Below are positions 39,157-61,423 of a DNA stretch of 64,000 nucleotides, one piece after another (position 1 is the first letter of the stretch; every line of letters begins with the position of its first letter). The notes under the pieces were generated by a model. It was not told the DNA's origin. It did not search any database and saw nothing but the letters and a program-made list of their open reading frames with translations. The translations under genes were made by a program, and so were the position numbers. Origin of the DNA: Turicimonas muris (GTDB lineage: Bacteria > Pseudomonadota > Gammaproteobacteria > Burkholderiales > Burkholderiaceae_F); assembly GCF_002221595.1 (NCBI RefSeq), contig NZ_NHMP01000004.1, forward strand, positions 62,001-126,000, given 5' to 3'.

Positions 39157-39233
39157 CGGAGTATAGCTCAGCCCGGTAGAGCACTGCGTTCGGGACGCAG
39201 GGGTCGTAGGTTCGAATCCTGTTACTCCGACCA
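39157..39233 (+). tRNA. tRNA-Pro (CGG anticodon), copy 1
   Basis: A complete cloverleaf with encoded CCA. The acceptor arm is CGGAGTA / TACTCCG, the anticodon stem CTGCG/CGCAG encloses TTCGGGA (anticodon CGG), and the T arm is GTAGG-TTCGAAT-CCTGT. It lies just after ispB and probably serves as the insertion site for the adjacent integrase-bearing element. Confidence 0.97.
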
Positions 39234-39417: not shown

Positions 39418-40761
39418 ATGCCACAAAGAGCGAAAGAGTTATCTGCACTTGCCGTTAAACGACTTACCGAGGTTGGGTTTTACTTTTTGGGCGGAGTGCC
39501 AGGCTTTGCCCTCAAGGTCCAAAAGAACTCAGCCAGTTACGTTTTAAGATATTCGGATGCCTACGGAAAAAAGCATGACGTTTTCATCGGTCCGCGCTCT
39601 GTTCTGAGCTTATCCCAAGCACGGGGTATTGCATTAGAGCTGAAAGCCAAGATTCTTGCGGGAAGAGATCCTCTTGAAGAAAAGAAACAAGCTCGACAAA
39701 AAATCAAAGAAGAGAAAAAACAGCAACAAATCCCAAACTTCGAAAAAGTAGCTAATGATTGGCTTAAGGATCGCGCAAGAAACGGATTTTTCCGAAACAA
39801 CCCGGAAGGTGAAATCCGAACGTTTTGGGTTTTAAATCGGCATATTTTCCCAAAACTCGGGGCTAAATCTATCAATGCAATAACACCTGAAATGATCAGG
39901 GATATTATCGGACCTTTATGGGAAACTAAAACAAACACTGCTCAAAAAGCACTAACCTACTTACGGCAGATTTTCAACTGGTCAATTGCTCTTCGGATTA
40001 GGGAAGACCGCGAAAATCCTGCTGATTTGAGATCTGCGCTAGGCGTTCTGCTCGAACCTCAAAAACGAAATCGACGCGAAAAAGAAAATCATGCTGCCAT
40101 CAGCGTTGAGGAGCTTCCAGCGCTTTATGCCGCGCTGGATAAACTTCAGGGAACCTCTCCTCGTGCTTGTCAGTTCGCGATCCTTACCGCTTCTCGATCC
40201 AAAGCGGTACGGCTCGCAACTTGGGATGAGTTCGATCTCGAAAACAAGATATGGAATATTCCGCTTGAACACGACAAAATGAAACAGGCGAAGAGAGACA
40301 GAACCATTCTTCTTTCTGACGAAGCTGTCCAACTACTTAAAGATTTGCCAAGATACACCGGACAAACAAAAGTCTTCTTAAGTAATCAAATGCAAACATT
40401 GTCTGATATGACTATGTCGATGGTTCTTAGGCGATTGCATAAAAAGCAAAAAAATATAGACGGTATCGGTTGGATTGATAAAGAAAAAAGCCAGAGAACC
40501 GAAAAAGATTGCATCGTTACTCCTCACGGTTGTGCACGTGCAACATTCAGAACTTGGGCAAAAGACGACACTATTGGGAACAATAAAGTCTTTGATCAAG
40601 AAGCTGTAGAACTTTGTTTATTGCATTCAAAAAGAGACGTCTATAACGGTGCTTATGACAGGGCGAGGCTTTTAACCGAAAGAAGAAAAATAATGGATGC
40701 CTGGGGAAAGTATTGTATATCTGCGGTTCGAGAAAAAACATCTCAAATAAAAGACTCGTGA
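39418..40761 (+). CDS. int: Tyrosine recombinase/integrase of the island (P4-like) family
   Basis: A 447-residue site-specific recombinase. The N-terminal DUF4102-like arm-binding domain (about 8-95) has GFALKVQKNSASYVLRYSDAYGKKHDVFIG (landmarks). It is followed by a core-binding SAM-like domain (about 105-200). The catalytic residues are Arg260 (LTASRSKAVRLATWDEFD), His370 and Arg374 (PHGCARATFRTW), His403 (LLHSKRD) and Tyr413 (NGAYDRA). It starts 185 bp after tRNA-Pro copy 1 and stops 52 bp before tRNA-Pro copy 2, so it targets the tRNA-Pro site. No clear ribosome site precedes the ATG. The frame is intact, so the element may be excisable. Confidence 0.93.
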   Translation: MPQRAKELSALAVKRLTEVGFYFLGGVPGFALKVQKNSASYVLRYSDAYGKKHDVFIGPRSVLSLSQARGIALELKAKILAGRDPLEEKKQARQKIKEEKKQQQIPNFEKVANDWLKDRARNGFFRNNPEGEIRTFWVLNRHIFPKLGAKSINAITPEMIRDIIGPLWETKTNTAQKALTYLRQIFNWSIALRIREDRENPADLRSALGVLLEPQKRNRREKENHAAISVEELPALYAALDKLQGTSPRACQFAILTASRSKAVRLATWDEFDLENKIWNIPLEHDKMKQAKRDRTILLSDEAVQLLKDLPRYTGQTKVFLSNQMQTLSDMTMSMVLRRLHKKQKNIDGIGWIDKEKSQRTEKDCIVTPHGCARATFRTWAKDDTIGNNKVFDQEAVELCLLHSKRDVYNGAYDRARLLTERRKIMDAWGKYCISAVREKTSQIKDS

Positions 40762-40889: not shown

Positions 40890-41492
40890 TCACATTTTTA
40901 TATTAGTTCTCGTCTTTGCGCTTTTCAAAATCTTCTCCGTTTTGTACAAATGATTTTCAATAAATGAACTTAATTTGGCAATTTGGAGCTTAAGTTCTTT
41001 GAATGGGATTGACCTTTTCTCGCGATTGTCCACCAATATATTCAAGGCATGAGCAATTTGGTTTAAGTTAACTCCGATTTTATTCATCGCAACTGTCGAA
41101 TCGATAACGGCCTCCCTTTCTTTTTCCAACAACATTATCGTACCTAGAAGATCCTTTCTAAGAAGCAACGTAAGGTAACCTTGTTTAGAAACGCCGAACT
41201 CTTTGGCTCTGCAATCTAATGCGGCCAGCTCACTTTTTGTTAACCTTAAGAAAAGAGGAATCTTTTTCTCTTCTGGGAATTCTTCTGCTTTGGCTTCAGA
41301 AAAAACAGTCCTAATAACACTTTTGTCCGAAGAGTTTTTCTGGCCTTTCAGCTTTTCTTCGATAGTTGCATTAATAAATGCCGAAAGACTTTCTCCGGAT
41401 TTTTTCGCATACTCCTTGGCTGCATCTTTTGTTTCCGTTTGAACGCGAGCCGTAAGAACACTGGTTTTCTTTTCTGAACCTCTTTTTGGCAT
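40890..41492 (-). CDS. mobC: MobC-like mobilisation protein with N-terminal ribbon-helix-helix
   Basis: About 200 residues from the start at 41492 (MPKRGSEKKTSVLTARVQTE). That start is chosen because the upstream extension of 53 codons crosses hairpin DNA and looks non-coding. The N-terminal part (about 8-52) resembles a ribbon-helix-helix domain (SVLTARVQTETKDAAKEYAK, SLSAFINATIEEKL). The C-terminal part fits the MobC relaxosome family: IPLFLRLTKSELAALDCRAK, then MNKIGVNLNQIAHALN. MobC helps a relaxase open oriT DNA. No relaxase gene is in the window. Its stop abuts the CCA end of tRNA-Pro copy 2. A candidate oriT lies upstream. Confidence 0.75.
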   Translation of the reverse strand: MPKRGSEKKTSVLTARVQTETKDAAKEYAKKSGESLSAFINATIEEKLKGQKNSSDKSVIRTVFSEAKAEEFPEEKKIPLFLRLTKSELAALDCRAKEFGVSKQGYLTLLLRKDLLGTIMLLEKEREAVIDSTVAMNKIGVNLNQIAHALNILVDNREKRSIPFKELKLQIAKLSSFIENHLYKTEKILKSAKTRTNIKM

Positions 41493-41538
41493 GACAAACC
41501 TTTTTGGTATTAACTCAGATCGTGTGTAACGTATCCAC

Positions 41539-41600
41539 CGAACGCTCCCGCGTTCGACCGCCTTAGCGGTGTGGCAGGACAACCGAAAATGAAATTTTCG
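41539..41600. repeat. Cluster of three short hairpins upstream of mobC
   Basis: Stems are CGAACGC/GCGTTCG (41539-41556), CCGC/GCGG (41558-41569) and CGAAAAT/ATTTTCG (41584-41600). The first and third are followed by ACCG, giving the shared ending TTCGACCG. The same ending follows the palindrome at 46862. Confidence 0.55.
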
Positions 41601-41635
41601 ACCGAGCCCTCGGCGAGGTGTTGATGCATCTATGG

Positions 41636-41675
41636 TATCAAATGTATACATTTGATATCAAGATGCGATCCTGCC
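41636..41675 (+). other. Candidate origin of transfer (oriT) with IncP-like nic site
   Basis: A perfect 22-bp palindrome (41636-41657; half-site TATCAAATGTA) is followed 10 bases later by ATCCTGCC (41668-41675). IncP/RP4-type (MOBP) nic regions have the consensus YATCCTG|Y with an inverted repeat on the 5' side. The predicted nick is after G41673. It lies about 145 bp upstream of the mobC-type gene, the usual relaxosome layout. No relaxase is visible. Confidence 0.5.
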
Positions 41676-41703
41676 TTAGCAGTAGTTAGTCGTACATCCT
41701 CAG

Positions 41704-42480
41704 TTGTTATCCCCAATTCAGCTTGTCAAAATTGTGGGTAACTACTCTGGCTGCTGAGAGTTGTCCGCATTTTCTCCCGGTAAGCGCTTGTCTCCGAAAC
41801 TGGCCGTAGTGAACCAAGTGAAAATTCTGGGCAACTCGAAGCCGAAAAGTTGATACGGATCAACTTTTGACTTCTCACGAAGTGGAGGCTCTATCTTTTG
41901 AAAAATCCGGCAGTAACCCATGCTGGCGGAATTTTCCTCTCTTCAGCATTGCCGGCAGAGACGGAATGCCGAAGCTGATTTCTGATTTGATTTTCAGAAA
42001 AAGTTGTTCCAGAACAACTTTTTCCCGATCCGATTTTTCTGTTGCCGTCTTTTTCAGCAGTTATCCCTAATCCGGGTTGCCAAGGATTGTGAGTAACCGC
42101 TCTGGTTGCTGAGAGTTGTCCTCATTTTCTCTCGGTGAACGCTTGTCTCCGAAACTGGCCGTAGTGAACCAAGTGAAAATTCTGGGCAACTCGAAGCCGA
42201 AAAGTTGATACGGATCAACTTTTGACTTCTCACGAAGTGGAGGCTCTATCTTTTGAAAAATCCGGCAGTAACCCATGCTGGCGGAATTTTCCTCTCTTCA
42301 GCATTGCCGGCAGAGCCGGAATGCTGAAGCTGATGTCCGATCTGATTTCAGGAAAAGTTGTTCCGGAACAACTTTTCCCCGATTCGATTTTCCTGTTGTG
42401 GATTTTTTCAGCAGTTATCCATAATTTGGTTTAGCAAAATTGTGGGTAACTGCTCTGACCGCTGAGAGTTGTCCTCATTT
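41704..42480. repeat. 355-bp tandem direct repeat built of hairpins (2.2 copies)
   Basis: Units begin at 41704, 42059 and 42414 (partial), exactly 355 bp apart. Each has an imperfect inverted pair at its start (GTTATCC(C/A).. and ..GTGGGTAAC). A second stem is GTTGAT-ACGG-ATCAAC. A third is a TTCAGCATT/AATGCTGAA arm with inner CCGG/CCGG (perfect only in unit 2). The fourth is a very strong palindrome: GAAAAAGTTGTTC/GAACAACTTTTTC at 41997-42024 in unit 1, and a 28-bp perfect palindrome with half-site GGAAAAGTTGTTCC in unit 2. A short open frame repeated inside the units (for example 42222-42434) has no ribosome site and is not called. The tandem array ends 71 bp before the mod start. Confidence 0.85.
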
Positions 42481-42550: not shown

Positions 42551-44069
42551 ATGCCGCTTTTAACTTGGATTAACGACAAAAGAGCACGTAGTGCTGCGAC
42601 AGAAGTTCCCTTCCATCTTTTAAAGAAAATCTCCTCCTATGGTGATGAGAAGGCCGTAAAAGAAAATCTGCTAATTCAAGGAGATAATCTTCTCGCACTC
42701 AAGGCATTACTGCCATTTTATCGGGGGGGGGGTGAAGTGTATTTATATTGATCCTCCTTATAACACTGGGAGCGCTTTTGAACACTATGATGACCATTTA
42801 GAACATTCTCAATGGCTTTCCATGATGTACCCTCGTTTGGTCCTCCTTCGTGAGTTTTTATGCGAGACCGGAACGATTTGGATAACATTAGACGATAGAG
42901 AAGTTCACTATGCGAAGGTTATATGCGACGAAATTTTTGGCCGTAAATGTTTTGTTAGTAGCGTAATTTGGAAATCAAGTGACAATAGCAACAACGATGA
43001 AAAGAAAATTTCAACCGACCATAACGAGATATTAGTTTATTCAAAATCTGAAGGATGGATTAGCAACAAACTAAACGATCCGAATAAGAGAGCACATTTC
43101 AAAAATCCGGATAACGATCCAAACGGCCCTTATTTTGATGGGAATCCCCTTAACTCTCCAAACTACCGGGAAAATTTAATATATGACATTGTGGCCCCAA
43201 ACGGAAACATCATAAAGCCACCAAAAAATGGTTGGAGATGGTCGAAAGAAACGTTAAAGGACAAATTGCAAAGTGGGGAAATCCGTTTCAACAATTCTAT
43301 GAATGGGATCTTTAGGAGGACGTACCTTAAAGATATGGCTGGTCTTCCACCGTCTTCTCTCTGGGTTGACCATGAAGAAACCGGACACAACCGTAGAGCA
43401 GCTACGGAACAAAAGCAACTAATAAAAGATAGTGGACAAACTCCTTTCAAGACTCCTAAACCAGAGACTCTGATTAAGAGGATTATTGAGATTTCTACTT
43501 CTCAAGGCGACCTTGTTCTCGATTCATTCCTTGGTTCTGGAACTACTGCGGCGGTTGCACATAAAATGCGAAGGAAATATATAGGAGTTGAACTTGGAGA
43601 ACACGCACGCACACATTGCCTGCCCCGGCTTGAAAAAGTAATACAGGGAGAAAGGGGCGGCGTTAGCGCTGTTGTTGGATGGACTGGTGGGGGAGGTTTT
43701 TCCTTTTATGAGTTAGGTCCGAAAGTTTTCGATCAATTTGGCAGTATCAACACAAATGTTGATTTTGAAACTCTCGCTGCATATATCTGGCAAAAAGAAA
43801 CAAATACTGTAACAGTTCCGTCTAAGTCTCCTTATCTCGGAACCACTGACGAAGTTTCTATTTTTCTCCTTTATAACGGAGTCCTAGGCGATAAAAAACC
43901 GGAAGCAGGTAATGTTCTTACTCCAAAGATCCTACGGATATTAGAAAAAGAGTATCCGATAAGCAGACAAAAAATCATTTATGGGGAAGCCGTAATTGGC
44001 CTCTCGGAAACAGAGCTCAATAAAAAAGGTATCACTTTTAAACAAATCCCCTACGATATAACGGAGTAA
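42551..44069 (+). CDS. mod: Type III restriction-modification methyltransferase (Mod), phase-variable, out of frame here
   Basis: DNA adenine methyltransferase subunit of a type III system. The N-terminal part starts at 42551 (MPLLTWINDKRARSAATEVPFHLL, then NLLIQGDNLLALKALLPFYRG). At 42723-42732 a run of ten G shifts the frame: G10 reads RGGGEVYLY-stop at 42751. Nine G would read RGGVKCIYIDPPYNTG and continue to 44069 (505 residues). The continuation has the DPPYN catalytic motif, then the target-recognition region, then DSFLGSGTTAAVAH (SAM site), the beta-class order of type III Mod proteins. It is in operon with res (5-base gap). As sequenced the gene is OFF; slipped-strand change of the G tract would switch it ON. 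Confidence 0.9.
42723..42732 (+). repeat. G10 homopolymer tract in mod (phase-variation switch)
   Basis: Ten consecutive G lie inside the mod reading frame, immediately before the catalytic DPPYN motif. G9 and G12 give the full frame; G10 and G11 do not. Confidence 0.92.
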
Positions 44070-44074
44070 TTTTT

Positions 44075-46852
44075 ATGTTCGAGCTGAAAAAATATCAACA
44101 AACGGCGATAGATACCCTCGCCGAATTTCTTTCCGTTCATCAACAGAAAGGAGCGCAAGAAGCTTATAGAAAACTTTGCGTGCTCAACGGATGGGGACAG
44201 CAAAGTGAATATTGCGATCTCTTTAATGGAGCACCGGCCGTTTGTCTCCGTGTCCCTACGGGGGGTGGAAAAACGATAATTGCAGCCTCTTCTATCAAGA
44301 CAATAGACCAAGGAACATTGGACACCGGAGCCCCGGTCGTTTTGTGGTTAACACCGTCTGATGCCATTACAACTCAAACCTTTTCGGCCTTAAATAGTCC
44401 CAGTCACCCGTATAGAAAATCCTTGGAAAAACAATATCCCGGAAAGGTCAAAGTTTGCGATATTGACTCAGTTCAAAGCTTGGCTCCAAGTGATTTTCGT
44501 CAATATTGCATCGTCATAGTTTCTACCAACCAAACCTTCAATATTCGTGACACCGGTAAGAGAAATGCATATTCATTTAATGAAAATTTAGAATCTTTTT
44601 TTCTTGATTTGAGCGCCGAACAAACAGAAAGCCTCGAAAAAGTCACGAAACAAGAAATTGAAGAGTATCCAAATGGAGTTCTGACAAGGCAGGATGAAGG
44701 CCGAGTCAAATATTCCTTAGCAAATTTATTAAAGTTGTACCGGCCAATACTTATTGTCGATGAGGCACACAACAACCGCACTGAGACTTATTTCAACACT
44801 TTGAACCGGCTCAACCCTTCGGCCTCTTTGGAATTAACTGCAACCCCGCAGAAAATGAACAATACTATCTTTACGGTTAGTGCTTGGGATTTAAAGGCCG
44901 AAAACATGATTAAGATCCCTATCCTTCTTACGGGAGAAGAATTGGGATGGGAACACTGTTTGATTCAATCAATAGAAAAATTGAAAGAATTGGATAAGCT
45001 TTCTATTACCGAAAATAAATACATCAGACCAATTTTACTGATACAAGCAGAGAAAAAAGAAGGGACGGCTACCGTCGATATGATTAAAAAGTATATGACA
45101 GCTAATTTAAATATTCTCGAAAAAGAAATTGCTGTCTATACCGGAGAAACCAAGGATTTTTCAGGAAATGAACTCTTTTCTCCAAATTGCCCGATTCGAT
45201 ATGTAATAACCATCAAAGCTTTGGCTGAAGGTTGGGACTGTTCCTTTGCCTATGTTTTATGCGGACTTCAAAACATAAAGAATGCAAAAGATACGGAGCA
45301 GCTTCTTGGAAGAATTTTGAGAATGCCCTATGCAGAAAAGCGGGTACATCCGGAGTTGAACAAGGCTTACGCTAATATTCAATCCTCTGCTACGATGAAG
45401 CTTGCCCTGACTTTAAAAGAAGGTTTCGTCCGTAACATGGGCTTTGACAGACAAGACGCCTCAGACTTGATCCAACTTTCTGTTAAGCCAGATATTGAGA
45501 CTTGTCCAGATCAACCTTCTTTATTTGAGCTCGGTGACGATAGGAAAGATTCGGATAACGCTAAAAAAAGAACTCCTGTGGCTCAAATAGCAGTAACGCT
45601 CGGCAATAAAGACCTCACTAGCTTGATTGAAGAAAAAGAAATTAAAGACATTCAAGTATCTGAGCTGAACCCGGATGAATCCAAAAAAGAAAGGACATGG
45701 ATTATTACCACGCCCACCTTAAACGAGGAAGAAAACCGGAAGCTGATAGACATAATTTTGTCCAATACCCCAAAGAAACTATTAGATACCAATAAAGAAA
45801 AGATAGACGATCTTTATTACCAACAAAATAAAGAACGTTGTAAGAGCATTCAAAAAGAGCCTATAAAGCCAATCCCTCTTCTTCTACTTAAAGACCCAGA
45901 GGGGGAGGACAGAATTTTTTCCTGTGAGGTTCTGAACAGTCAGGAATGGGAGCCTTCCAAATATGGATACGAATTAAAAGGGTTTACACCTGTTAAAGAG
46001 TTGAAAGGCTACCTGTTTGATTCGAAAGAAAACGGAAAATTCCAGCTAAACGAGATTCGATCTTCTATCTCTCAAAAAACTCCTGTCTTCAATTCCGAGT
46101 TTGAATTGATAACGAAGGAACAACTGATATATTGGCTGTCCAGAGAGGTCAAACGGAATGATCTGACTCCTCAAACTGTCAGAAAATTTGTGGAAGCCAT
46201 TGTTACGAGAGATCTTCTTACGTCCAAGGGCTATTCTCTTGAAAGCTTATATCAAAGTCGTGTTCCGCTGGCTAAGGCAATTAAAAACCTTCTCGAATCA
46301 AATTTCAAATTATCAAAGTCGGCCAATTACCAATGGGCCCTTCCACTTACTTTTATGGAGCCTGCCAAGGAGGAATTTTGTTTTAAATTCGATCCTCAAA
46401 AATACACCCCAAGAAATTGTTATGTAGTTGAACAAGGTTCAAGACAATTCGAAAAGCACTATTTCCCGAAGATCCATGACTTGCATTACAAAACTCCCAG
46501 CGGCAACGCTGTCTCTGAAGAGTATTTATGCGCGGTTGCAATTGATATGAATCCGAAAGTTGAATTTTGGATTCGGATCATAGAAAAGTCTGATGACTCT
46601 TTTAGGCTGGAAACGCCTTTCGGTTTCTTCTATCCCGATTTTTATGTCCAATTAGAAGATGGTCGACGATTCATTGTCGAATATAAAGGCGAGCAACTGT
46701 GGAGCAACACCGATTCACAATTAAAAAGAGACATCGGCAAGCAATGGGAAAAAGCTAGCAATGGAGAATGCCTTTTCCTAATGTGTCGATATGAAGACAA
46801 AGGCTTGGATATCTCTGAACAAATCAACAATAAGATAGACGGAATCCGTTAA
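44075..46852 (+). CDS. res: Type III restriction endonuclease subunit (Res)
   Basis: A 925-residue ATP-dependent helicase-nuclease. The SF2 helicase core has Walker A PTGGGKT (61-67), DEAH at 229-232 (ILIVDEAHNN), ELTATPQ and a motif VI-like segment (TEQLLGRILRMPYA). The C-terminal nuclease domain has YPDFYVQLEDGRRFIVEYKGE, a PD-(D/E)xK site. Length and order match EcoP15I-type Res. Res needs Mod for DNA recognition, so with mod out of frame the whole system should be inactive in this state. The frame is intact from ATG to stop. Confidence 0.95.
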   Translation: MFELKKYQQTAIDTLAEFLSVHQQKGAQEAYRKLCVLNGWGQQSEYCDLFNGAPAVCLRVPTGGGKTIIAASSIKTIDQGTLDTGAPVVLWLTPSDAITTQTFSALNSPSHPYRKSLEKQYPGKVKVCDIDSVQSLAPSDFRQYCIVIVSTNQTFNIRDTGKRNAYSFNENLESFFLDLSAEQTESLEKVTKQEIEEYPNGVLTRQDEGRVKYSLANLLKLYRPILIVDEAHNNRTETYFNTLNRLNPSASLELTATPQKMNNTIFTVSAWDLKAENMIKIPILLTGEELGWEHCLIQSIEKLKELDKLSITENKYIRPILLIQAEKKEGTATVDMIKKYMTANLNILEKEIAVYTGETKDFSGNELFSPNCPIRYVITIKALAEGWDCSFAYVLCGLQNIKNAKDTEQLLGRILRMPYAEKRVHPELNKAYANIQSSATMKLALTLKEGFVRNMGFDRQDASDLIQLSVKPDIETCPDQPSLFELGDDRKDSDNAKKRTPVAQIAVTLGNKDLTSLIEEKEIKDIQVSELNPDESKKERTWIITTPTLNEEENRKLIDIILSNTPKKLLDTNKEKIDDLYYQQNKERCKSIQKEPIKPIPLLLLKDPEGEDRIFSCEVLNSQEWEPSKYGYELKGFTPVKELKGYLFDSKENGKFQLNEIRSSISQKTPVFNSEFELITKEQLIYWLSREVKRNDLTPQTVRKFVEAIVTRDLLTSKGYSLESLYQSRVPLAKAIKNLLESNFKLSKSANYQWALPLTFMEPAKEEFCFKFDPQKYTPRNCYVVEQGSRQFEKHYFPKIHDLHYKTPSGNAVSEEYLCAVAIDMNPKVEFWIRIIEKSDDSFRLETPFGFFYPDFYVQLEDGRRFIVEYKGEQLWSNTDSQLKRDIGKQWEKASNGECLFLMCRYEDKGLDISEQINNKIDGIR

Positions 46853-46861
46853 TCTTTATTT

Positions 46862-46955
46862 TCGAAACTCCGGAGTTTCGACCGCTTCTGATTTCCGATT
46901 TGATTTGCTGGGAAAGTTGTTCCGGAACAACTTTCTTCCGACTCGGCTTTCTTAA
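46862..46955. repeat. Palindromic repeat copy downstream of res
   Basis: Contains CGAAACTCC/GGAGTTTCG, then a stretch similar to the 355-bp unit (GATTTCCGATTTGATTT). The palindrome GAAAGTTGTTCC/GGAACAACTTTC follows (46912-46935 region). Together with 41704-42480 it brackets the R-M operon. Confidence 0.7.
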
Positions 46956-47240: not shown

Positions 47241-47392
47241 AGCTCCTTCTCTTTTTTCTCATTTGGTTCTTCAAAGACATACTCAGGCGTGTCATAGGAG
47301 ATCACCTCTTTATGCGCCATCGTCGGCGGTTATAACTCTAAGCTGGATTTACTTCTTCGTTAGATTTAATATAGGGAAATTCCCAGTATATG

Positions 47393-47401
47393 CCCCCCCC
47401 C
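47393..47401 (+). repeat. C9 homopolymer tract upstream of an autotransporter promoter
   Basis: Nine C in a row, 25 bp upstream of the -35 element and 92 bp before the autotransporter start. Position and length fit a transcriptional phase-variation tract. Confidence 0.75.
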
Positions 47402-47426
47402 GATAGAGTCCAGAAGCATTGTGAAT

Positions 47427-47493: not shown

Positions 47494-50400
47494 ATGCTAC
47501 TAACACTCTCTTCGGACTGTGATCATTGTCCGATTTATAAAAAAAGAAAGATTTTTCAGATCTTGTCTGAACTTTTAAATAAAAATTTAACGGTGGGGCA
47601 GCGCAGTAAGTTTGCATTTTTGCCAATCGTAGGTCTAGGGACAGTCGTGGCTGCAGAGCCACCTGTTGAGCCAACAGATGTGTTGGAAATAACGGCGCAG
47701 GTTACATCAAGCGAGACTTACAATGATTTAAAAGAAATTTCCTCATCTGTAAAGAATGTCTTTCAACTTGCTAACACGAGTGGCGAACAAAACCTTCGAT
47801 TTAATAATGTTGCACAAATTAGTCTAATAAATAAAAGCAATAGTAGCGGATTTTATATTTTCCAAGTATCTTCTCCCAAAGATACCCAGAAACAAAATAT
47901 TTATTTTACACAAAAAGCCCCTCTTATCAGTTCTTCTTCTGGCGTGATTTTCTCTGCAATAGGAAATTTAAATGGACGACTTCTGAGCCAGCAGAATGTC
48001 TATGGAGATATAGAAGAACTCTTCGTTACTAAGGGATCAATTGCTAGACCACTAAATATTGATGGAGAGTTCACCCCAGAAACACCGAGAAAACAGGGTG
48101 CTCCGTATGGCGTTATTTCGCTAACTACAGGCGCTCGTCAGGTTTTTTATGGGAATATTGGTGCCATATCAACAGGTTCGAATGCTCTTGGTACGGCGAT
48201 TTATGTCCGTGGAGATAATCCGAATAGCACTTCTTATCCTGCTCCTACTGAACAAGCTTTCCTAGGGACTATCGGAGATATTGGTTCTGCTTCCAATCGT
48301 TTCCTTTACGGAATTTCAATGCTTCAGCAGGCTGATCAATATATAGAAGAAGTCGGAACAATTTATGCAACCTTTAGAGGGGTGCGTAATTATAGGTCGG
48401 AGCATGGTTCAGGAAACCAGCTAACAACATTCGGAAAACCAACTGGACAGTACCTTAAATCTGTAGAAATGATAGATTTAAAACGAGCTGGAACTTCATA
48501 TAACACTATTGCTGTTTATAACTGGAACGATAATGGCAACAAAAGTTGGGGAAGACAATACATTGGGCTCAGAGGGAAAAAAATTGGTGACGAGTATGTC
48601 GGAATAAGTGTAGAAGACAGTTTACGAGTACCAATTGCACTGCAAAATATTGGAGGCGTGCAGGAAATAGAAGCATTAAATCATGAGGGAGTAGCAATCA
48701 ATTTAATAGGTAATGCAGGCTATACAGCTTTCGTACAGGGACAAATTAACAATAAAAACGACTCGAGTCGGGAAAGCGTTCTCACAAAAACAAGTTTTAC
48801 AGGGCCATTTACAATTACTGCTCCACTAAAGGTAAGGTCTACCTTATGGATAGGGTCCTCAGCTAAACCTCCCTTGGAAAAAGGAATTTCTGCATTAGAG
48901 TTTTCTTCCAACGAATTTGGCAGAGGAAGTAAATTTAATCCCGGAGCTTACATTGATATTGAAAAGAGTACAAATACAACACCTTTACAAGGGGATGAAA
49001 ATGCTTATAACAATACAAGACTAATTTTTTCTAACTCTGGTCTGACCTGGAGCTACTCAAACTACATCCATAATCTAGGCGTTTTGCGTTCCTCACCTCT
49101 TGTTAATCCGTCCCAGGGAACGTCATTGGCTACATCCTCTTTTGAATTTAATACTGTTTACATTAGTTCTAATCATGTAAATCCAGATAATCAGCCTTCA
49201 CCCCCTCCCTCTCCCGATACTGAAGAGCCAGATCCCGACTCTCCGGATCCAGTATTCCCTGAAGGTGGCAGCCCTGAGGGTGGCAGTTCAAAAAATGACG
49301 GTGGGGCGATAAAGTTTAACAGTTTGACACCTTCTGCTCTTATAGGAAGTACTGCTTCTCAGACTCCGGATGAAGGTTCTGAAGAGCCGAAAGATCCAGA
49401 TGAGCCGGATATTGAGGTTCCGGAGATCAAGGTAAGATATAAGTATCCCTATGGAAATGGTCCTTACATGAATTATTGGGCTATTGGAAGCTCCGCAACT
49501 ACGGCCCCTTATTTCTATTTTGAAAAAATAGAAACCTCTGATGGAAAAGCTGTCAAGGCAGACCGCTCCAATGCATCTTCTCTGGATTTTTATGTAAAAC
49601 CAACAAATTTCTATAAAGATGGGGTTTCAACAGTCGGAACATTAAATGCAGATAATTTTTGCGCCGGAGAAAGCTGCGGAGATACTAAAGAAATTGCTCC
49701 TGGATGGCAGGGAGCACCAAGTGATAAGCGCTTGGCAGCTGCTTTTTGGTTGCTTAGAAGTGCTGCAAACTCAATTTATGCTAAAGAGGGAATAGAGAAC
49801 ATTGGTTCTCAGGATTACATTCTGATTAAAGATGACTATGAGGAAGGTTTTAATGGTCTGACTAAAGGAACTATGTGGATTAAAACCACAGATGAAGAGG
49901 GAAATGAAATTGTTAAGAGAGACGATCCGAACGGAGAAAATCCTAAGTATGCTCATGCTGCAGGTTGGGTGATTATTCCGGAAGGTGTCGTTAACCATGC
50001 TCTTAAAGCTCAATGGTATTTTGAGGATATAGATCTAGTCCAAGAAGCAAATAGTGAGGTACCGGAAAAAGTTAAAGATGCAGGGGCAAAATACAGAGGT
50101 GAAATCATTGATCTCGCAACATGGTTCCCTTGGGAGCCTATGGAACCCGGGTTTACTCATCCCATTCCTTTGATTCCTGCTACACCTATTCCCAAGCCGC
50201 AGCCTACTCCAACGATGAAATCCATAGAGTCGGTATCTCTTAGTCATTATTTCACTTGGCGTCAGGAAATAGACACCCTCCATCAAAGACTGGGTGAAGT
50301 TCGAGATAATTACGAATTGGAAGGTCTTTGGGCAAGAGGCTACGTCGGACGCAATAGATTTAACCATAACGGTTATTACTTCAAGGATAATTACAAGGGT

Positions 50401-51186
50401 ATCCAGATCGGAATAGATCGGAATTACTTCGAATACAAAGACTCCTACCGCTGTCGCGATAAAGACGGAGAAAATTTCCCCTGTAAGAGAGAGAAGGCCC
50501 ATGAATGGATTTACGGTGCAGGTCTGTCCTATACAGACGGAGACCTGAAACTTAGCAGAGGCGGAAATGCAGACAATTGGATGGCCAGTTTCTGGCTCTA
50601 CGGTGTTAGGAAATTTTCCAATGGCGGTTATCTTGATCTCGTCGGTAAAGTCAGCCGATTCTCCAATAAGTTCTCCGCCTGGAGCAGCGACTATCTCCTA
50701 AATACCAAAGGTCATGACAGAACTTGGGGCTACACATTAAGCGCTGAGTACGGTAATAAGCATTACATTTACAAAAATAAAGATTGGTACTTTGACCCAC
50801 AGCTTCAGATCATTTATGGCAGAATCTTAGGCTCTGATTTTAGGACTAACAATAATGTTAACGTCCGCCATAAAGCGGTCAATAGTTTGATAGGTCGTGC
50901 TGGCATTGCGCTTGGATATGAAGCAAAGGAAGGTTCCGCATTTGTCAAAGTTGATGCACTAAGAGAGTTTAAAGGCCGCTTAGATACGACATATAAACTC
51001 GATGACGGCAGTTCTAACCGTTCACGCTTTAATCTTAAAGAGACTTGGGGAGAAGTCTCTGCTGGGGGCACTTATACCTTCTCACAGAAAAAAGACAAAT
51101 TTGCTCACTTCTACGTAAAAAGAAGTTTTGCCTCTAAGCTGAAGGCCGATTACCGCGTTGATATCGGATTCGAATACATTTTCTAA
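47494..51186 (+). CDS. Type V autotransporter, large surface protein
   Basis: A 1230-residue outer-membrane autotransporter. A long signal region (1-54) has a basic extended segment (KKRKIFQILSELLNKNLTVGQRSKF) before the hydrophobic core, as in other large autotransporters. The passenger (about 55-930) is rich in Ser, Asn and Gly. Two acidic Pro-rich linkers (near 570-610 and 635-655; PSPPPSPDTEEPDPDSP) separate its parts. A CxxxC pair (CAGESC, about 727) is unusual in such passengers. The C-terminal beta-barrel (about 960-1230) has GLWARGYVGRNRFN, GIQIGIDRNYFEY and the terminal DIGFEYIF ending in Phe. The passenger's target is unknown. A hairpin and two lipoprotein genes follow in the same direction. 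Confidence 0.9.
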   Translation: MLLTLSSDCDHCPIYKKRKIFQILSELLNKNLTVGQRSKFAFLPIVGLGTVVAAEPPVEPTDVLEITAQVTSSETYNDLKEISSSVKNVFQLANTSGEQNLRFNNVAQISLINKSNSSGFYIFQVSSPKDTQKQNIYFTQKAPLISSSSGVIFSAIGNLNGRLLSQQNVYGDIEELFVTKGSIARPLNIDGEFTPETPRKQGAPYGVISLTTGARQVFYGNIGAISTGSNALGTAIYVRGDNPNSTSYPAPTEQAFLGTIGDIGSASNRFLYGISMLQQADQYIEEVGTIYATFRGVRNYRSEHGSGNQLTTFGKPTGQYLKSVEMIDLKRAGTSYNTIAVYNWNDNGNKSWGRQYIGLRGKKIGDEYVGISVEDSLRVPIALQNIGGVQEIEALNHEGVAINLIGNAGYTAFVQGQINNKNDSSRESVLTKTSFTGPFTITAPLKVRSTLWIGSSAKPPLEKGISALEFSSNEFGRGSKFNPGAYIDIEKSTNTTPLQGDENAYNNTRLIFSNSGLTWSYSNYIHNLGVLRSSPLVNPSQGTSLATSSFEFNTVYISSNHVNPDNQPSPPPSPDTEEPDPDSPDPVFPEGGSPEGGSSKNDGGAIKFNSLTPSALIGSTASQTPDEGSEEPKDPDEPDIEVPEIKVRYKYPYGNGPYMNYWAIGSSATTAPYFYFEKIETSDGKAVKADRSNASSLDFYVKPTNFYKDGVSTVGTLNADNFCAGESCGDTKEIAPGWQGAPSDKRLAAAFWLLRSAANSIYAKEGIENIGSQDYILIKDDYEEGFNGLTKGTMWIKTTDEEGNEIVKRDDPNGENPKYAHAAGWVIIPEGVVNHALKAQWYFEDIDLVQEANSEVPEKVKDAGAKYRGEIIDLATWFPWEPMEPGFTHPIPLIPATPIPKPQPTPTMKSIESVSLSHYFTWRQEIDTLHQRLGEVRDNYELEGLWARGYVGRNRFNHNGYYFKDNYKGIQIGIDRNYFEYKDSYRCRDKDGENFPCKREKAHEWIYGAGLSYTDGDLKLSRGGNADNWMASFWLYGVRKFSNGGYLDLVGKVSRFSNKFSAWSSDYLLNTKGHDRTWGYTLSAEYGNKHYIYKNKDWYFDPQLQIIYGRILGSDFRTNNNVNVRHKAVNSLIGRAGIALGYEAKEGSAFVKVDALREFKGRLDTTYKLDDGSSNRSRFNLKETWGEVSAGGTYTFSQKKDKFAHFYVKRSFASKLKADYRVDIGFEYIF

Positions 51187-52311: not shown

Positions 52312-52788
52312 TTGAAACCCATTTACAAAACGACTGAAGGAGAACTTTATCAGTACGATTGCCTCGACTTTCTAAAAAACATTCCATCCGAAAGTGTAAG
52401 CACGGTTTTTGCCGATCCGCCTTACAACATTAAGAAAGCCAAGTGGGATTGTTTTACTACGGACGAAGAATATATTAACTGGTCCATTGAGTGGATATCC
52501 GAGTGTTCGAGGGTCTTAAAAGAAGAAGGAACGCTTTACGTTTGCGGCTTTTCAGAAATTTTGGCAGATCTTAAAAGACCTTCCATGCAATACTTTAAAA
52601 AATGCCGTTGGCTTATTTGGTATTACGATAATAAGGCCAATCTAGGGAAAGATTGGGGCCGAAGTCATGAGAGTATTCTCTGTTTTAGAAAAACAGAGGA
52701 TTTTATATTCAATATTGACCAAATAAGAATTCCATATAATTCTCACACCTTAAAGTATCCCTCCCGTCCGATGTCTGGGAAAACCAGC
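52312..52788 (+). pseudogene. Site-specific DNA methyltransferase (N6-A/N4-C type), 3' end replaced by IS66
   Basis: About 159 native codons beginning at TTG 52312 (MKPIYKTTEGELYQYDCLDF). Motif IV is TVFADPPYNIKKAKW. Further beta-class features are SRVLKEEGTLYVCG and GRSHESILCFRKTEDF. The SAM-binding FxGxG motif that should follow is missing because the frame enters IS66 terminal sequence at 52789 and stops at 52830. No continuation is found after the right IS end. The fragment is unlikely to methylate DNA. Confidence 0.85.
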
Positions 52789-52895
52789 GTAAGGTTCCCA
52801 TGGCTCGATAAGAGCGTAAGGTTCCCATGACTGTGATGAATATTTTCTAGCGAAGGTGAAAAATTGGCTTATTGAACAACCGAGAGGAGTTTTAC

Positions 52896-53186
52896 ATGAG
52901 CCAAGCCGACTACGTTCTTTCCTTTCCATCCGTTACAGTGGAAGCCAATCCGAGCCCAACAGTTGTCCCCGACGAACTTGAGGCAGCCGAGCAAGATATG
53001 CAAGAAGACGAGGTTGAGATATTTGAAATCGAGCCGGCCGCAGTAGAAAAGCCGGCAGAATTAGGACCAGCCTCGAAGCAAATTACCGTTTCTGTAAGAT
53101 CGGAGGTTACTGTGAGCTATGAAACGGCGGATCCTAGCCTTGAAGCCAGAGGTTTGATAAAGATGCTTCTCGGAGTGCAGCCATGA
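52896..53186 (+). CDS. IS66 accessory protein (TnpA position)
   Basis: A 96-residue product starting at ATG 52896, five bases after GAGAGGAG. It is acidic in the middle (QDMQEDEVEIFEIEP) and has no recognisable HTH, unlike classical IS66 TnpA. It takes the place of that gene and overlaps the next one by four bases. Confidence 0.7.
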   Translation: MSQADYVLSFPSVTVEANPSPTVVPDELEAAEQDMQEDEVEIFEIEPAAVEKPAELGPASKQITVSVRSEVTVSYETADPSLEARGLIKMLLGVQP

Positions 53187-53539
53187 GTTTTCTGAACTTT
53201 AAAGGATGCAAGATTACGGTCGTCACCACTGCCACTGATCTACGAGCCGGTTACTTTAGACTGGAAGCCTTTGCTAGAAGCACTCTTAATATAGACATCT
53301 GCTCGGGCCATCATTGTGTTGTGTTTTTATCTCGTACACGGGCGCTGGCCAAGATTATCGCAGCTGACCAGTCGGGAATGACTTTGATAACCAGACGGCT
53401 GCATCATGGGAGCTTCCAACAGCTAATGAGTCTTCTTGACAGCCCGGCTAAAAGAAGCCTAACAGCTGAACAGCTCGTATCCTTTTTAAATGGAAAACGC
53501 ATTGAAGGAGCCCGCAAAAACTACTTTAAGGAACAATAA
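53183..53539 (+). CDS. IS66 Orf2 (TnpB) accessory protein
   Basis: 118 residues with the IS66 Orf2-like pattern: VVTTATDLRAGYFRLEAFA, then FLSRTRALAKIIAADQSGMTLITRRLHHG. The usual DLRKG reads DLRAG, and WDG-like core residues are changed. Translationally coupled to the upstream gene by a 4-base overlap. Needed in cis for IS66 transposition, by family knowledge. Confidence 0.8.
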   Translation: MSFLNFKGCKITVVTTATDLRAGYFRLEAFARSTLNIDICSGHHCVVFLSRTRALAKIIAADQSGMTLITRRLHHGSFQQLMSLLDSPAKRSLTAEQLVSFLNGKRIEGARKNYFKEQ

Positions 53540-53716
53540 GTTGTAACACTTTGTTTGATAACCAGCGTTAAAAAAATCCATCCTATAAACCTTGATCACC
53601 AAGGCTTTTAGCCATGGTATTTGAGAGCTTTGGAGGGGACTGCGAAGGCCGGTTTTAATCTGCTTTCAGTTGCTTCATAATTGAACAGTGTTCGGCATTC
53701 CCAACCGGAGAGCAAA

Positions 53717-55738
53717 GTGTTCAACAAGAAGCAGCTCAAAAATTTGTCACAAGAAGAACTCATTGAGCTTGTGCTTAAAACGGAAAAAGAAAAAGAAGAA
53801 ATACAGGCGCGATTTCGCGGGCTCTCCACAATTGTCATCAACGCATTTCACAACTGTAAAGAAGTGGCCTTATTAGCCGACAAATATCTGATTGCCGAAG
53901 ATAAATGGATGGGGCTAGCCATTGAACAGCAGATCAGCCATATGCTTGAATCGCTCAGAGTCTTGGCTGAAAATAGTTCGAGTCAATTTCAAGCGTTACT
54001 GGGAAAAGGATCGGAAAAAATTGGTAGGGCTGAGGTTGATAAAGAACTCAAAGAAAACAAAGGTTCGTGGGTTAACGGCAGCAAAGAACTGATAGAGGCC
54101 ACACGCATCGTTGATCAAGTCGTTAAATCGTTGCCGGAAAACACTCCGTTAGCCGGAGAATTTAAAAGCATCGTCAATGAGCCTGCTGCTTCAATTGCCG
54201 CTTTAGAAAAGAAGCCGAGCCTTGGGCGCCAAAAGGTAAATCCAAAGGTAAGAGAGCGCACCGTTGTTCCTGCTTCCGACAAAGTTCCTCACTGCAAAGG
54301 CTGCACGGAAGAGATGATAAAGCTCTCTAGCTTTGTAGAAACAATAAGAAGAAAGACACTGCCAAAACTGGACAATCTTGAGGCTCTCTCTCAGCGGCAA
54401 GATGTTTATGTATGTCCTAAATGCGGACAAGCACATGTCAGGCTCCCGGTCGATGCAGAGCATCCGGTTAACTGCGCACGCACAGTCGGTACATCGATGC
54501 TGGTTGAGCTAGCTATGGGCCTTTACAGCGGAATACCGCTGCACAGACAGATTAAGGAGCTGCAGCAAAAGCTTTGCTTGGGCCATGACACCGTCTCGTA
54601 CAACTTGCATGATTTAGCCCGCTTTTACCTGCATCCTCTTGCTCTGCTTTATGAATCCTCTTTAAAGAAAGCCGATGTACTAATCGCAGATGAAACTGTA
54701 TTTCCGGTGCTTGAAGCTCAGGGAAGAGGAAAGTGTGCCAAGGAGCGCATGAATGAGTCTAAGCTGCGCAAACAGAATTATCTTCTGGCTCTGACAACAG
54801 CAGCTTCAGCGCCTGAACAAATATTTATCCTTAAGTATTTACCAAGCCGAAGCGCTCAAGCAATTAGCTCACAAATCACATCAGACTTCCAGTTCAATAC
54901 TTTAGTAACCGATGGCTATAGCGCCTATGAAACAGTTCTTCAGGCACTAGGCGGGGAAAGAAAGCATCAAAGCTGTTTAATTCACTACCGGCGCAAACTT
55001 CTCAGTGCTCTGTTAAGCAGCAGTCTTTTAAAAGAACTTCATCAATCAGCGCTCGGTGAAAAAGAAAAGCTCAAGCAGATGAAGATAAGAGTCCAACAGG
55101 CTGAGCCGGGCAGCTGCGTGCTTATCTGTGTTGAGGCACTATCAAAGCTGTATAACCTGCAAGAGGCAATATCGAAGGAAGTCTCGCAGAGGAAGCAGGA
55201 AGAATACCGCAGGCGCCAGGACTCTTTATTAACGGCGGTAGACAAAATAATGTCCTACCAAGCCGACAAAATCTGTATAAAAACTCAATCTGGTTTATAT
55301 AAGAAAGGAGTCGGAGGCGGGTTGTACTCAGCGGCATGCGCTTACTATATGAATTTGCGCAACGAATTTAAGGTCTTTATCGATGACTTCAAAGTACCGG
55401 CTGACTCTAATCTGGTAGAAAGCCGCTTGAGGCCGGTGACAGTTCTGAGGAAAAACATTTGGTATAAACAATCGGTTGAGTATGCGGTGGATATGTGCGA
55501 CATCTACTCTATCTTTAAGACGCTCGAACTCAACGGCATAGCCCCAGTGGAATATTTGAAAAAGTACTGTCGGAGCGTCTATGGTCACGTCCTCGATAAG
55601 GCTTGGACGGAAGCGTTAAAAGACGGACACGATAAAACCAAGAAGATAGGTTCCTTGGACTTCAAGCACGGACTGGAAGATTACGACCTCAAGCCATGGC
55701 TTCCGTCTACCTACAAACAATTGCAAGCAGAGAGCTAA
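53717..55738 (+). CDS. IS66 transposase (TnpC)
   Basis: 673 residues from GTG 53717, preferred because GGAGA lies at the right distance upstream. An N-terminal coiled coil/leucine-zipper part (NLSQEELIELVLKTEKEKEE) is present. A zinc-binding segment (CKGCTEEM, CPKCGQAHVRLP) follows. The DDE catalytic region has VLIADETVFPVLEAQGRGK, LVTDGYSAYETVL and the Glu in ADSNLVESRLRPVTVLRKN. The frame is intact, so the element may be active. Confidence 0.93.
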   Translation: MFNKKQLKNLSQEELIELVLKTEKEKEEIQARFRGLSTIVINAFHNCKEVALLADKYLIAEDKWMGLAIEQQISHMLESLRVLAENSSSQFQALLGKGSEKIGRAEVDKELKENKGSWVNGSKELIEATRIVDQVVKSLPENTPLAGEFKSIVNEPAASIAALEKKPSLGRQKVNPKVRERTVVPASDKVPHCKGCTEEMIKLSSFVETIRRKTLPKLDNLEALSQRQDVYVCPKCGQAHVRLPVDAEHPVNCARTVGTSMLVELAMGLYSGIPLHRQIKELQQKLCLGHDTVSYNLHDLARFYLHPLALLYESSLKKADVLIADETVFPVLEAQGRGKCAKERMNESKLRKQNYLLALTTAASAPEQIFILKYLPSRSAQAISSQITSDFQFNTLVTDGYSAYETVLQALGGERKHQSCLIHYRRKLLSALLSSSLLKELHQSALGEKEKLKQMKIRVQQAEPGSCVLICVEALSKLYNLQEAISKEVSQRKQEEYRRRQDSLLTAVDKIMSYQADKICIKTQSGLYKKGVGGGLYSAACAYYMNLRNEFKVFIDDFKVPADSNLVESRLRPVTVLRKNIWYKQSVEYAVDMCDIYSIFKTLELNGIAPVEYLKKYCRSVYGHVLDKAWTEALKDGHDKTKKIGSLDFKHGLEDYDLKPWLPSTYKQLQAES

Positions 55739-56699: not shown

Positions 56700-59600
56700 C
56701 TAGAACATGTACTTGATGCCGATCTGAGCGGTTTCGTTGTGATAACCAGCTTTACCGGCCTGTACGCCGAAGGTCGCCCAGCCTAATGTGTTGCGGGTGA
56801 TGTGACCTTCTAAGCCCATACGGAATTCACCGAGGTTGCGTCCGCCGTCCATGTAGACTCTGTCGCTTCCCATCTGAACACCGGCTTTCTTGGTGTTATG
56901 AATCCAGTTACCTTCGATAAAGCCTAAGCCCTTGTTCATGTAGTTAGCATGAAGTCTGGCGCCGACACGCAGCGTTACGTTGTCCGTTCCTAACTGACGA
57001 TACTTGGTGCCGGTAGCGTCTGTTGCAGAATTGGCCTTAACTCCGTCCCAAATCAACTGGGCTTCAGGCTGGAACGTCCAAATCAGCTTGTTGTAGTCCT
57101 TGGTTCCGGTTTCATTCAGAGGGATGGTGTAACCGGTTTCCACTGACCAAACCCAGCCATGAGACTTGTAGTTAAACGGAGAGAGTTCATCGCCCCAAAC
57201 CTTGTTGTCATAGCGTCCGAAGAGAAGCCAAGAGTCGACATAGAAGCCGTCATCAGGGCTGTTGCCTGTATAAAGCGTTCCGTAGATGCCAAGAGAGTAG
57301 CCGTCTGAACGAGACTTGGCGCTATCCCAAGAGCGGCTGTCTGTACGGTTATAAAGACCGCCGGCAAAGACACCGCCGATATACTTCCAATCCTCATTAA
57401 ACTCGTTTCTCAGTAAATCTCCGCCAATCTGAGTAACCGCGGTACGAGAATGACTCTTGCTTTGACCACCGCCCATATTGAAGTGTGAGTGAGAGCCAAC
57501 CTGACGAACCCATGCGGCTGCCGGCTTTTCCTCTCCGTCAAACGGATCGATGTAGTAGGCCTGACCGAAGCGGTCATGCAGTCTCATATGCATCTTCGCC
57601 CAGGATTGAGAGGCTCCGACATAAGCGCCGGCTTCAGGTCTGAGAACCGGAACTTCAGGTTCTACTGGTTCGTAATGATCTCCATCATCATCGGAGTTGT
57701 AGAGAACCCACGTTCTTCCTCCGTTTTCATCTTCGTTATAGCCCAATGAGTAAACCCACTTATAGGCCTCATCATCCTTAGCGACGACACCAAAGGGTTT
57801 CATTTCGAGTCGAAGCTGACTTCCGCCTTGTCCCTTGTCGGTAATCACAAAAATCGGAATGCCTTCACTCTTGATTGTCTTTTCCCCGCGAGATTCTGCG
57901 AAGACGCCGCTAACCGGAATCTTGTTGTGGTCATCTCCAAAAGATACCGTAGAAGTACCTGTGGCCGTTAGTGCATGAATAACGTCAACGGAAGAGTTTG
58001 CAGGGCCCTGGACCAAACCTCTGTAGTGAATAACAGAACCTTCTTCACCTGCATAGTTTTCTGCAACATGCACATGATTCAGATTAGAGATCTGATTATC
58101 CCCACCGGACAGGAAAACATCTCCGGCATTCTTAATGCCATATATATTGGCAATGCCTGTTGAGCTAAGGAATGATAACGAAGATCTTGAAGAAATATCC
58201 GCAGTTCCCTTGACTAAGGCATCTTGATGGTAAAGTTCAGCAGAAGCGTTACGCAAGGCGTAAGTACCTAAAAAGTCCGGATTTGCGCTGTATACGGAAG
58301 ATGCTCCATATGTGACAATCAACTTAGATTGATCGTTACCGGTCAAATTTCCTCTAATCGTTGCAAGTTCACTTCGTGTACTCGGTCCAAGAACGGTCAG
58401 CTCTCCCCCAGTACTTCCCTTGAGAGCTTCGTCCGTACCATCCGGCGCTGTTAAATTAACGACAGCTCCCTCAGCAACATCTAATCCACCTACAGTTTGG
58501 GTAAATCCCATTAAGTCATAAGAACCCGTGGTACCATCTTCGCCCTTAGCAAAGGCTAACAATTGTGTATGAATTGCCTCTGAACCTAATGCGTTATTTA
58601 TCCCTTGAATAAGGTGTGCATTTTGACCTACCGTTGTCACACCAATATAACGATTTTGGTTTTCTGCAAGGTTTTGTTTTTGGTATGGATTTTCAGGGTC
58701 ACCCACCACAACTGTTGTATTATCCGCAATATACAAACCTCCGCGTCCAGTTACTTGTGCAGAAAGCTGATACCGGCCTCGTTCATAGTTCTCTGTCTCA
58801 TTCTCATTTAGTCCGTAGAGAACTAACTGTTGTCCTTCTAGAACATTTAAAGATTTGAGCCAGTACTTAATTCCTATGCCCCCTTCCTCTCCTTCACCTG
58901 TTGCCTTACTGCTGAAGTCTCTATCGACCCCATCCAAATCCGTCACGGTAAAAGTCTCATCTTTCCCGTCAAAGTGCATGTATTTATAGAAACCGTAGGT
59001 AGCTATAGCGACAGGAGTCGGGCCTCCCTGATAGATTTCAAATCCAGGAATATCGATCGTCATATCTTCCCAGCTTGTTGAAGTATTCCCGCCTTTGATA
59101 GGCTCTTTGTAGTAAAGCTGATTCCTATCGGCGTTCATGAATATGCCGATTGCTGTATTTCCAAAAGCATTTGTTCCCTGTCCGGAGTCCTCCCGGAACT
59201 TTGCGATTTTATCGAAATCTATGGCAACAGATCTCACATCTTGCCCGTTTGCATCCTTGCCGTTATTAACCCCTAAATATAAGACTAAGCCATCATAATG
59301 GTAACGGAAATTGTGCATCAAAGCCTCTGAATGGTCCGTAGAAGACGAAGCGTCTACGTTCTTGCTGAACACCATTCCATCGTCATGAGTGAGGAGAGAA
59401 AGATCTCCTCCTTCATATTGATGGCGAACTTCGCTTCCATTAAATAACTTGCTTTCAGTTTTTAAGGACTTACCTTGACCATCTACCTTGTTCGTTAAAT
59501 TGGTGTAGGCTGCCACCCAAAAATTATGATCACCATTTGTTGAGGGGCTATCATTAGAATTACGTTGAGAAAGACTCGAATTAAAACCCCTTCTATTAAC

Positions 59601-61414: not shown

Positions 61415-61423
61415 CCCCCCCCC
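61415..61423 (-). repeat. C9 tract upstream of the phase-variable autotransporter promoter
   Basis: Nine C (plus strand), about 52 bp upstream of the -35. The remaining 290 bp to 61716 hold no gene that I can see. It mirrors the C9 tract at 47393. Confidence 0.65.

What the first reader, a model, noticed from the sequence alone, without database searches (positions are those of the whole stretch)
42551..44069. Probable phasevarion: type III mod gene switched OFF by a G10 tract next to its catalytic motif
The sequence shows a run of ten G inside mod; removing one G restores a full Mod frame with DPPYN directly after it. Type III mod genes with simple repeats are established phasevarion regulators in Haemophilus, Neisseria, Moraxella and Helicobacter. 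I am not aware of a described case in this gut lineage. An intact res follows, so restriction and genome-wide methylation would switch together.
Basis: partly seen in the sequence, partly recalled or inferred. Interest (0 to 1): 0.9.

Follow-up and report, generated by a model that had tools for sequence, protein, structure and literature searches.

The report
G-tract on/off switch in methyltransferase gene
A bacterial DNA-marking gene is interrupted by a run of ten G's of the kind that often slips by one base, so cells could switch this DNA-marking and phage-defence enzyme on and off; the switch is a known kind, but this genome seems to hold many such switches.

Summary
Ten G's (42723-42732) lie inside a type III mod gene (42551-44069), break its frame after 66 codons and end 17 bases before DPPYN. 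Of lengths G7 to G13, only G9 and G12 keep the frame open (505 or 506 codons). Homologues show that both halves are one gene: in 42 of 42 loci where both halves matched they share a frame, and none of 96 homologous loci that reach this site has a G tract there. An intact 925-codon res follows.

The tract is not alone. The 2.89 Mb genome has G7=3, G8=3, G9=18, G10=1 and nothing longer. The 19 longest sit at autotransporter genes, a sugar-nucleotide dehydrogenase, prophage tail genes and two further restriction-modification genes, among others. This supports slippage-driven phase variation, with mod caught OFF.

Length variation between cells or strains, methylation and any regulon could not be tested, so "phasevarion" is unproven. 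An assembly error at G10 is not excluded. The family's G9 tracts are often followed by TA, which I cannot explain; mod's is not.

It is a new member of a known kind. The multi-locus tract set in a Burkholderiales-like lineage is the more interesting part.

The parts
42551..44069 (+). type III mod gene, in OFF frame (two overlapping open frames)
   Evidence: PF01555 E 3.9e-48; PADLOC MTase_III PDLC03644 E 1.1e-136
42551..42751 (+). N-terminal open frame as sequenced, 66 codons, ends 19 bases after the tract
42723..42732 (+). G10 tract, candidate slippage switch
42732..44069 (+). rest of Mod, 445 codons, open, in the frame that G9 or G12 would join
42750..42764 (+). catalytic motif DPPYN
   Evidence: translation; motif name recalled
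43527..43541 (+). FLGSG, SAM-binding motif (FxGxG type); its position after DPPYN fits a beta-class adenine methyltransferase
   Evidence: translation; class rule recalled
44075..46852 (+). res, 925 codons, intact (Walker A VPTGGGKT, VDEAH, C-terminal FIVEYKG)
   Evidence: PF04851; REase_III PDLC03650 E 1.8e-176; motif names recalled
39157..39233 (+). tRNA-Pro(CGG), left edge of the inserted stretch
39418..40761 (+). phage-type (tyrosine) integrase
   Evidence: PF22022, PF13356, PF00589
40813..40889 (+). second tRNA-Pro(CGG)
40890..41651 (-). MobC/NikA-like mobilisation protein
47393..47401 (-). G9 tract upstream of the autotransporter gene 47494-51186
61415..61423 (-). G9 tract upstream of the autotransporter gene 56700-61208 (minus strand)

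Best explanation
A type III restriction-modification pair (mod-res), probably acquired horizontally, whose mod gene carries a slippage-prone G tract at codons 58-61. Shown: the tract, the broken frame, the open solutions at G9 and G12 only (of G7-G13), the conservation of both halves and the intact res. Inferred: DNA polymerase slippage adds or removes one G; at G9 cells make full Mod, which methylates an asymmetric site and, with Res, restricts unmethylated DNA; at G10 (this assembly) translation stops before the catalytic motif, so neither methylation nor restriction takes place. The main benefit is most likely variable phage defence within a population; a methylation-dependent regulon (a phasevarion in the strict sense) may follow but is untested.
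For: Frame analysis. Both halves belong to one gene: in 42 of 42 loci (of 80 examined) where both halves matched, they lie in one frame, and the joined protein aligns across the tract, without a gap there, to EcoP15I Mod 4zcf_A and to 6k0w_B. At G9 the length equals that of homologues (LLPFYRG[K/R/Q]VKC..DPPYN or close to it). No G/C run of 7 or more at this site in 79 loci that reach it (80 examined, L079 does not) or in 17 more same-order loci. No second lesion: 445 and 925 codons open. Type III assignment of both genes by PADLOC models. Genome-wide tract lengths G7 3, G8 3, G9 18, G10 1, longer 0, that is a peak at nine, not a decay. The genes at the 19 tracts of nine or more include classical phase-variable classes: six tracts at Pfam-confirmed autotransporters, three in restriction-modification genes, one in a UDP-sugar dehydrogenase, three in a prophage tail region; six are at frames without a family match or unassigned.
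Against: No length variation of one and the same tract was seen: an IMG/VR copy of the own prophage has the same three G9 tracts over 8,885 identical bases, and an IMG/VR copy of another family member's tail array has the same six tracts over 8,670 identical bases; both may be the same isolates. In the one same-genus genome all 11 runs of 8 or more are exactly G9, which looks more fixed than a hypermutable set should. The mod tract differs from most others: it is followed by TG, not TA. No NCBIfam model reached its cut-off for Mod or Res.
Confidence: 0.74

Rival explanations
1. Sequencing or assembly error: the true and constant length is G9, mod is simply ON.
For: 18 of the 19 tracts of nine or more in this genome are G9 and this is the only G10; homopolymers are the usual place of such errors (recalled); the genome is a draft of 20 contigs.
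Against: Tract codons are improbable by the gene's own codon use and the genome is rich in such tracts, so even at G9 the site would be slippage-prone.
Confidence: 0.13
2. A one-way inactivating frameshift: mod is a fresh pseudogene, res a silent partner.
For: As sequenced the gene is broken; of 67 genomes of the family only this one has a close copy, the next being 45% identical, so loss may cost little.
Against: No other lesion in 1,370 codons of mod (C half) and res, and the break lies exactly in a homopolymer, the most reversible kind of lesion.
Confidence: 0.08
3. The OFF length is leaky: RNA polymerase or ribosome slippage on ten G's, or a restart at GTG 42732 that overlaps the upstream stop, gives some Mod in all cells, so the tract tunes the level rather than switches it.
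For: GTG 42732 opens the second frame and overlaps the first by 20 bases; slippage on long homopolymers is established (recalled).
Against: A restart product would lack the conserved GDNLxALKxLxPxY stretch seen in homologues and aligned to 4zcf and 6k0w; the bases before GTG are the tract itself, with no spaced ribosome-binding site (by eye).
Confidence: 0.05

Closest known systems
ModH of Helicobacter pylori (poly-G phase-variable type III mod)
   Same: type III N6-adenine mod gene, poly-G tract in the open frame, ON/OFF by frameshift (PMC5700931, passages read)
   Different: modH's tract lies 104 bp downstream of the DNA recognition domain; here it lies before DPPYN. Here length variation, methylation and regulon are untested.
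Type III mod phasevarions of Haemophilus, Neisseria, Moraxella
   Same: type III mod with a simple repeat that switches it ON and OFF (PMC7394358 and PMC13076061, passages read)
   Different: repeat units there are longer (recalled); here a single-base G tract
Cj0031 type IIG enzyme of Campylobacter jejuni
   Same: a phase-variable restriction-modification gene (PMC4889913, search listing and abstract start only); that it is a poly-G tract in a genome with many G tracts is recalled
   Different: type IIG enzyme, not mod-res; the own genome has two IIG-like genes with G9 tracts that resemble it more
EcoP15I
   Same: mod-res architecture (recalled); the joined Mod aligns to 4zcf_A
   Different: no G tract known to me; this Res had no PDB match by sequence at E 0.001

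Membership tests
Type III restriction-modification system | Mod of the type III kind | tested here: met
   PADLOC MTase_III PDLC03644 E 1.1e-136, profile 61-540 of 542, with the C half alone; NCBIfam gave only models below their cut-offs
Type III restriction-modification system | Res helicase-nuclease next to it, intact | tested here: met
   PDLC03650 E 1.8e-176, PF04851; 925 open codons, 5 bases after mod. The one NCBIfam match was weak (25.5 bits against a cut-off of 800)
Type III restriction-modification system | methylates and cuts DNA at an asymmetric site | not testable with these tools
   needs methylome or enzyme assay
Phase-variable type III mod | simple repeat in the open frame whose length sets the frame | tested here: met
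Phase-variable type III mod | repeat length varies between cells or isolates | not testable with these tools
   no reads and no second isolate of mod reached; a pattern from the mod flank had 0 hits in viral contigs
Phasevarion | ON/OFF methylation changes expression of several genes | not testable with these tools
   needs transcriptomes of locked strains
ModH family of H. pylori | G tract downstream of the recognition domain | tested here: not met
   tract at 42723-42732, before DPPYN, against 104 bp downstream in modH

The most novel reading that the evidence does not exclude
This Burkholderiales-like lineage runs a multi-locus G-tract phasome in which at least three restriction-modification systems (type III mod, and two type IIG-like genes), surface autotransporters, a surface-sugar enzyme and prophage tail-tip cassettes switch independently, so DNA methylation, phage defence, phage adsorption and surface vary in combination. 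The tract set is held near nine G's, often followed by TA, by a process that is not understood.
Probability: 0.45. Interest if true: 0.66.

Novelty: new member of a known kind. Interest (0 to 1): 0.46.

Why it matters
A 2025 review names the apparent restriction of genomes with many phase-variable loci to pathogens as a major open question (PMC11868660, section 8 read). A non-pathogen with nineteen G9/G10 tracts, three of them in restriction-modification genes, would be a direct test case: one could ask whether phage defence or gene regulation keeps such switches, in a setting without immune evasion by a pathogen. That this organism is not a pathogen is an assumption; the record is unnamed.

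Tried and rejected
Rejected: a plain pseudogene reading (no second lesion; both halves conserved); chance homopolymer (codon use; length distribution); a tract shared with homologues (0 of 79 loci that reach the site, 0 of 17; one locus, L204, has a G9 elsewhere in its mod-like gene, and three, L027, L054 and L067, a G7 or C7 elsewhere).

Led nowhere: a search for length variation in IMG/VR; kinship of named genomes through handles (not told); the second methyltransferase in other family members (one other genome of 66, weak, with stops); Res against solved structures (none); near relatives on plasmids (56 records, none covering 80% of the query). Literature on phase variation or methyltransferases in Sutterella, Sutterellaceae, Turicimonas and Parasutterella: the listings (3 papers, 20 listed of 8,474) show nothing on this subject by title and abstract start; these names were my guesses at the lineage and come from no call. 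The survey of type III mod genes (Atack 2018, recalled) was not held, so I cannot say that no relative is listed there.

Considered: promoter -10 boxes as the cause of the TA after tracts; by eye 7 of 21 have T at position 6, near chance, not pursued. Three G8 runs of the own genome were left out of the tally of 19 (in a glycosyltransferase gene, at the start of a COX1 gene, and one without a frame).

Full report
OBSERVATION. The window holds ten G's at 42723-42732. ATG 42551 opens a frame that passes through the tract and stops at 42751 after 66 codons; a second frame, 42732-44069, runs 445 codons without a stop. A script that set the tract to G7 through G13 found an open gene only at G9 (505 codons) and G12 (506 codons); the other five stop at 60-67 codons. 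DPPYN is encoded at 42750-42764 and FLGSG at 43527-43541 (read). res follows after five bases, 44075-46852, 925 codons open.

ONE GENE, ONE LESION. The C half matches Pfam N6_N4_Mtase (3.9e-48) and the PADLOC type III methyltransferase model PDLC03644 (1.1e-136); the next gene matches the type III restriction model PDLC03650 (1.8e-176). NCBIfam gave only matches below the models' cut-offs for both, and Res had no match among solved structures. The search for related loci returned 80 homologous loci (of 96 found). In most of them the residues before the motif read like LLPFYRG[K/R/Q]VKC or ALEQ[DE]FAGKVKC, and at G9 the window would read LLPFYRGGVKC, the same length as the former. Where tblastn matched both halves (42 of 80 loci), both lay in one frame in 42 of 42; in the other 38 at least one half did not match at the cut-off used (1e-5). 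The joined protein aligns through the tract to EcoP15I Mod (4zcf_A) and to 6k0w_B. No locus of the 79 that reach this site has a G or C run of 7 or more there (L079 does not reach it); three have one of 7 elsewhere. Of 17 further loci from 399 genomes of the same order (matches at 1e-80 or better), none has one at the site and one, L204, has G9 elsewhere. In the family, 67 genomes were searched; 12 have some match, the own copy is the only close one, and the next is 45% identical in G040.

NOT CHANCE. In the rest of mod and res, GGG is 10 of 77 glycine codons, CGG 9 of 61 arginine and GTG 4 of 66 valine. The product for CGG GGG GGG GTG, given the residues, is about 1.5e-4 (my arithmetic).

THE GENOME AROUND IT. 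Pattern searches of the own genome (2,887,709 bases, 20 contigs) gave one G10, 18 G9, three G8, three G7 and nothing longer (the split by exact length is mine, from overlapping places). A random composition would decay with length; here nine is the peak. I fetched the stretches around all 19 tracts of nine or more (and the window) and looked at open frames and families. By my assignment: six stand at genes with a Pfam autotransporter domain (C15:109393, C15:123415, C11:474996, C11:558937, C11:620605, C14:66734); three at two long open frames without a Pfam match (C5:30075; C15:312237 and C15:312969 share one of 1629 codons); three in restriction-modification genes (this mod; C15:276829, an Eco57I-type methyltransferase, in frame; C14:32733, the N half of a type IIG gene, in frame, whose C half is cut off by an IS1595-type transposase); one in a UDP-glucose/GDP-mannose dehydrogenase, in frame (C11:297930); three in a prophage tail region (C11:127492, 128307, 129015; a tail-chaperone domain and an IMG/VR copy); three unassigned (C5:28970, C11:656140, C11:729077). 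The type IIG labels rest on PADLOC models PDLC03626, PDLC03375 and PDLC03616, which carry no cut-off. The three G8 runs were left out.

THE LINEAGE. The genome's TypA-like GTPase (my name for the frame) is 77% identical to those of a Herbaspirillum and a Pandoraea, 75% to Polynucleobacter, 68-69% to Methylotenera, an Azonexaceae MAG and a Burkholderiaceae MAG, 65% to Corticibacter, 62-64% to five Gammaproteobacteria and 53-54% to two Alphaproteobacteria (names from the records, class labels recalled). So it lies nearest Burkholderiales, though Corticibacter, also of that order by recall, scores lower than two other Betaproteobacteria. 'Gut' was not tested. Tracts of nine or more are found in 56 of 67 genomes of the family, with lengths from 9 to 13 among those listed (the list is cut short). 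Such tracts also occur in 9 of 14 named genomes of other groups, so their mere presence is no mark of this family.

AN UNEXPLAINED FEATURE. In the own genome and the one same-genus genome, 21 of 30 tracts of nine or more are followed by TA, against 0.067 of 481 shorter runs of 4-6 in the fetched stretches of the own genome. Across the family GGGGGGGGGTA occurs 171 times and the reversed control ATGGGGGGGGG 44 times (sums by hand). The excess is uneven: 13 against 0 in the own genome, but 7 against 6 in G017 and 2 against 2 in G018. In the same-genus genome all 11 runs of 8 or more are exactly G9. Sixteen of the 21 are TAA or TAG (my count), so a stop codon after the tract is one possible cause, but some of these genes run the other way. 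The mod tract is the exception in length and is followed by TG.

ORIGIN. In the same-genus genome, compared over 15 kb, the conserved stretch ends at a single tRNA-Pro after the octaprenyl diphosphate synthase gene. In the window two tRNA-Pro genes bracket an integrase, and a MobC-like gene and mod-res follow. The pair was therefore probably brought in by a mobile element; the right border was not found. No drug-resistance gene appeared among the ten neighbouring frames scanned with NCBIfam; the whole window was not scanned.

MECHANISM. Slippage at the tract would add or drop a G; G9 gives full Mod, G10 a 66-residue stub without the catalytic motif. Type III Res needs Mod (recalled), so methylation and restriction would be lost and gained together. 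Switching ON with an active Res in an unmethylated genome is a hazard that type III enzymes soften by needing two opposed sites (recalled). Defence against phage is the simplest use; regulation by methylation is possible.

WHAT WAS NOT SHOWN. No reads, no second isolate, no methylome. Two comparisons that could have shown length change showed none: the own prophage and its IMG/VR copy share three G9 tracts over 8,885 identical bases, and another family member's tail array and its IMG/VR copy share six tracts over 8,670 identical bases. These may be the same isolates sequenced once. An assembly error at the only G10 remains possible.

LITERATURE. Passages of PMC5700931 (modH poly-G), PMC7394358 (17.4% of type III mod genes hold simple repeats), PMC11868660 (passages; section 8 whole) and PMC13076061 (passages) were read; the rest are listings. 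Against this background mod is a new member of a known kind.

Noticed in passing
L151 (G000:C15:276829-276837): G9 tract inside an Eco57I-type methyltransferase gene (512 codons, in frame) next to a helicase-like gene that matches the N-terminal part of the same type IIG model: a second possibly phase-variable restriction-modification system.
   Followed up: partly
L148 (G000:C14:32733-32741): G9 tract in the N half of a type IIG gene whose C half is separated by an IS1595-type transposase.
   Followed up: partly
L140 6457-8690; L176 3544-5860; L177 4244-6568; L178 4393-5408: Stretches with three to six G9 or G10 tracts followed by TA, about 440-820 bases apart, among short serial frames. In L140 they lie in a prophage tail region; in L176 three of the short frames match a Gp10 C-terminal baseplate domain and one tract is inverted. 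They look like phase-variable tail-tip modules; L177 and L178 were not annotated.
   Followed up: partly
family-wide, G000 and G064 in detail: G9 tracts are followed by TA more often than shorter G runs or than the reversed control, unevenly between genomes, and in one genus (two genomes) 29 of 30 tracts of nine or more are exactly nine. Unexplained.
   Followed up: partly
window 52312-55738: A further adenine methyltransferase gene fragment of 172 codons directly followed by IS66 genes: probably cut by the IS insertion.
   Followed up: no
window 41700-42480 and 46888-46950: Intergenic repeats with a 355-base period before mod and a related copy after res, with the palindrome AAAGTTGTTCCGGAACAACTTT.
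   Followed up: no
window 47385-47412: The G9 tract before the autotransporter gene also lies in the spacer of a minus-strand promoter-like match, as in known spacer-tract switches (recalled), but such matches are no more frequent than in shuffles.
   Followed up: no
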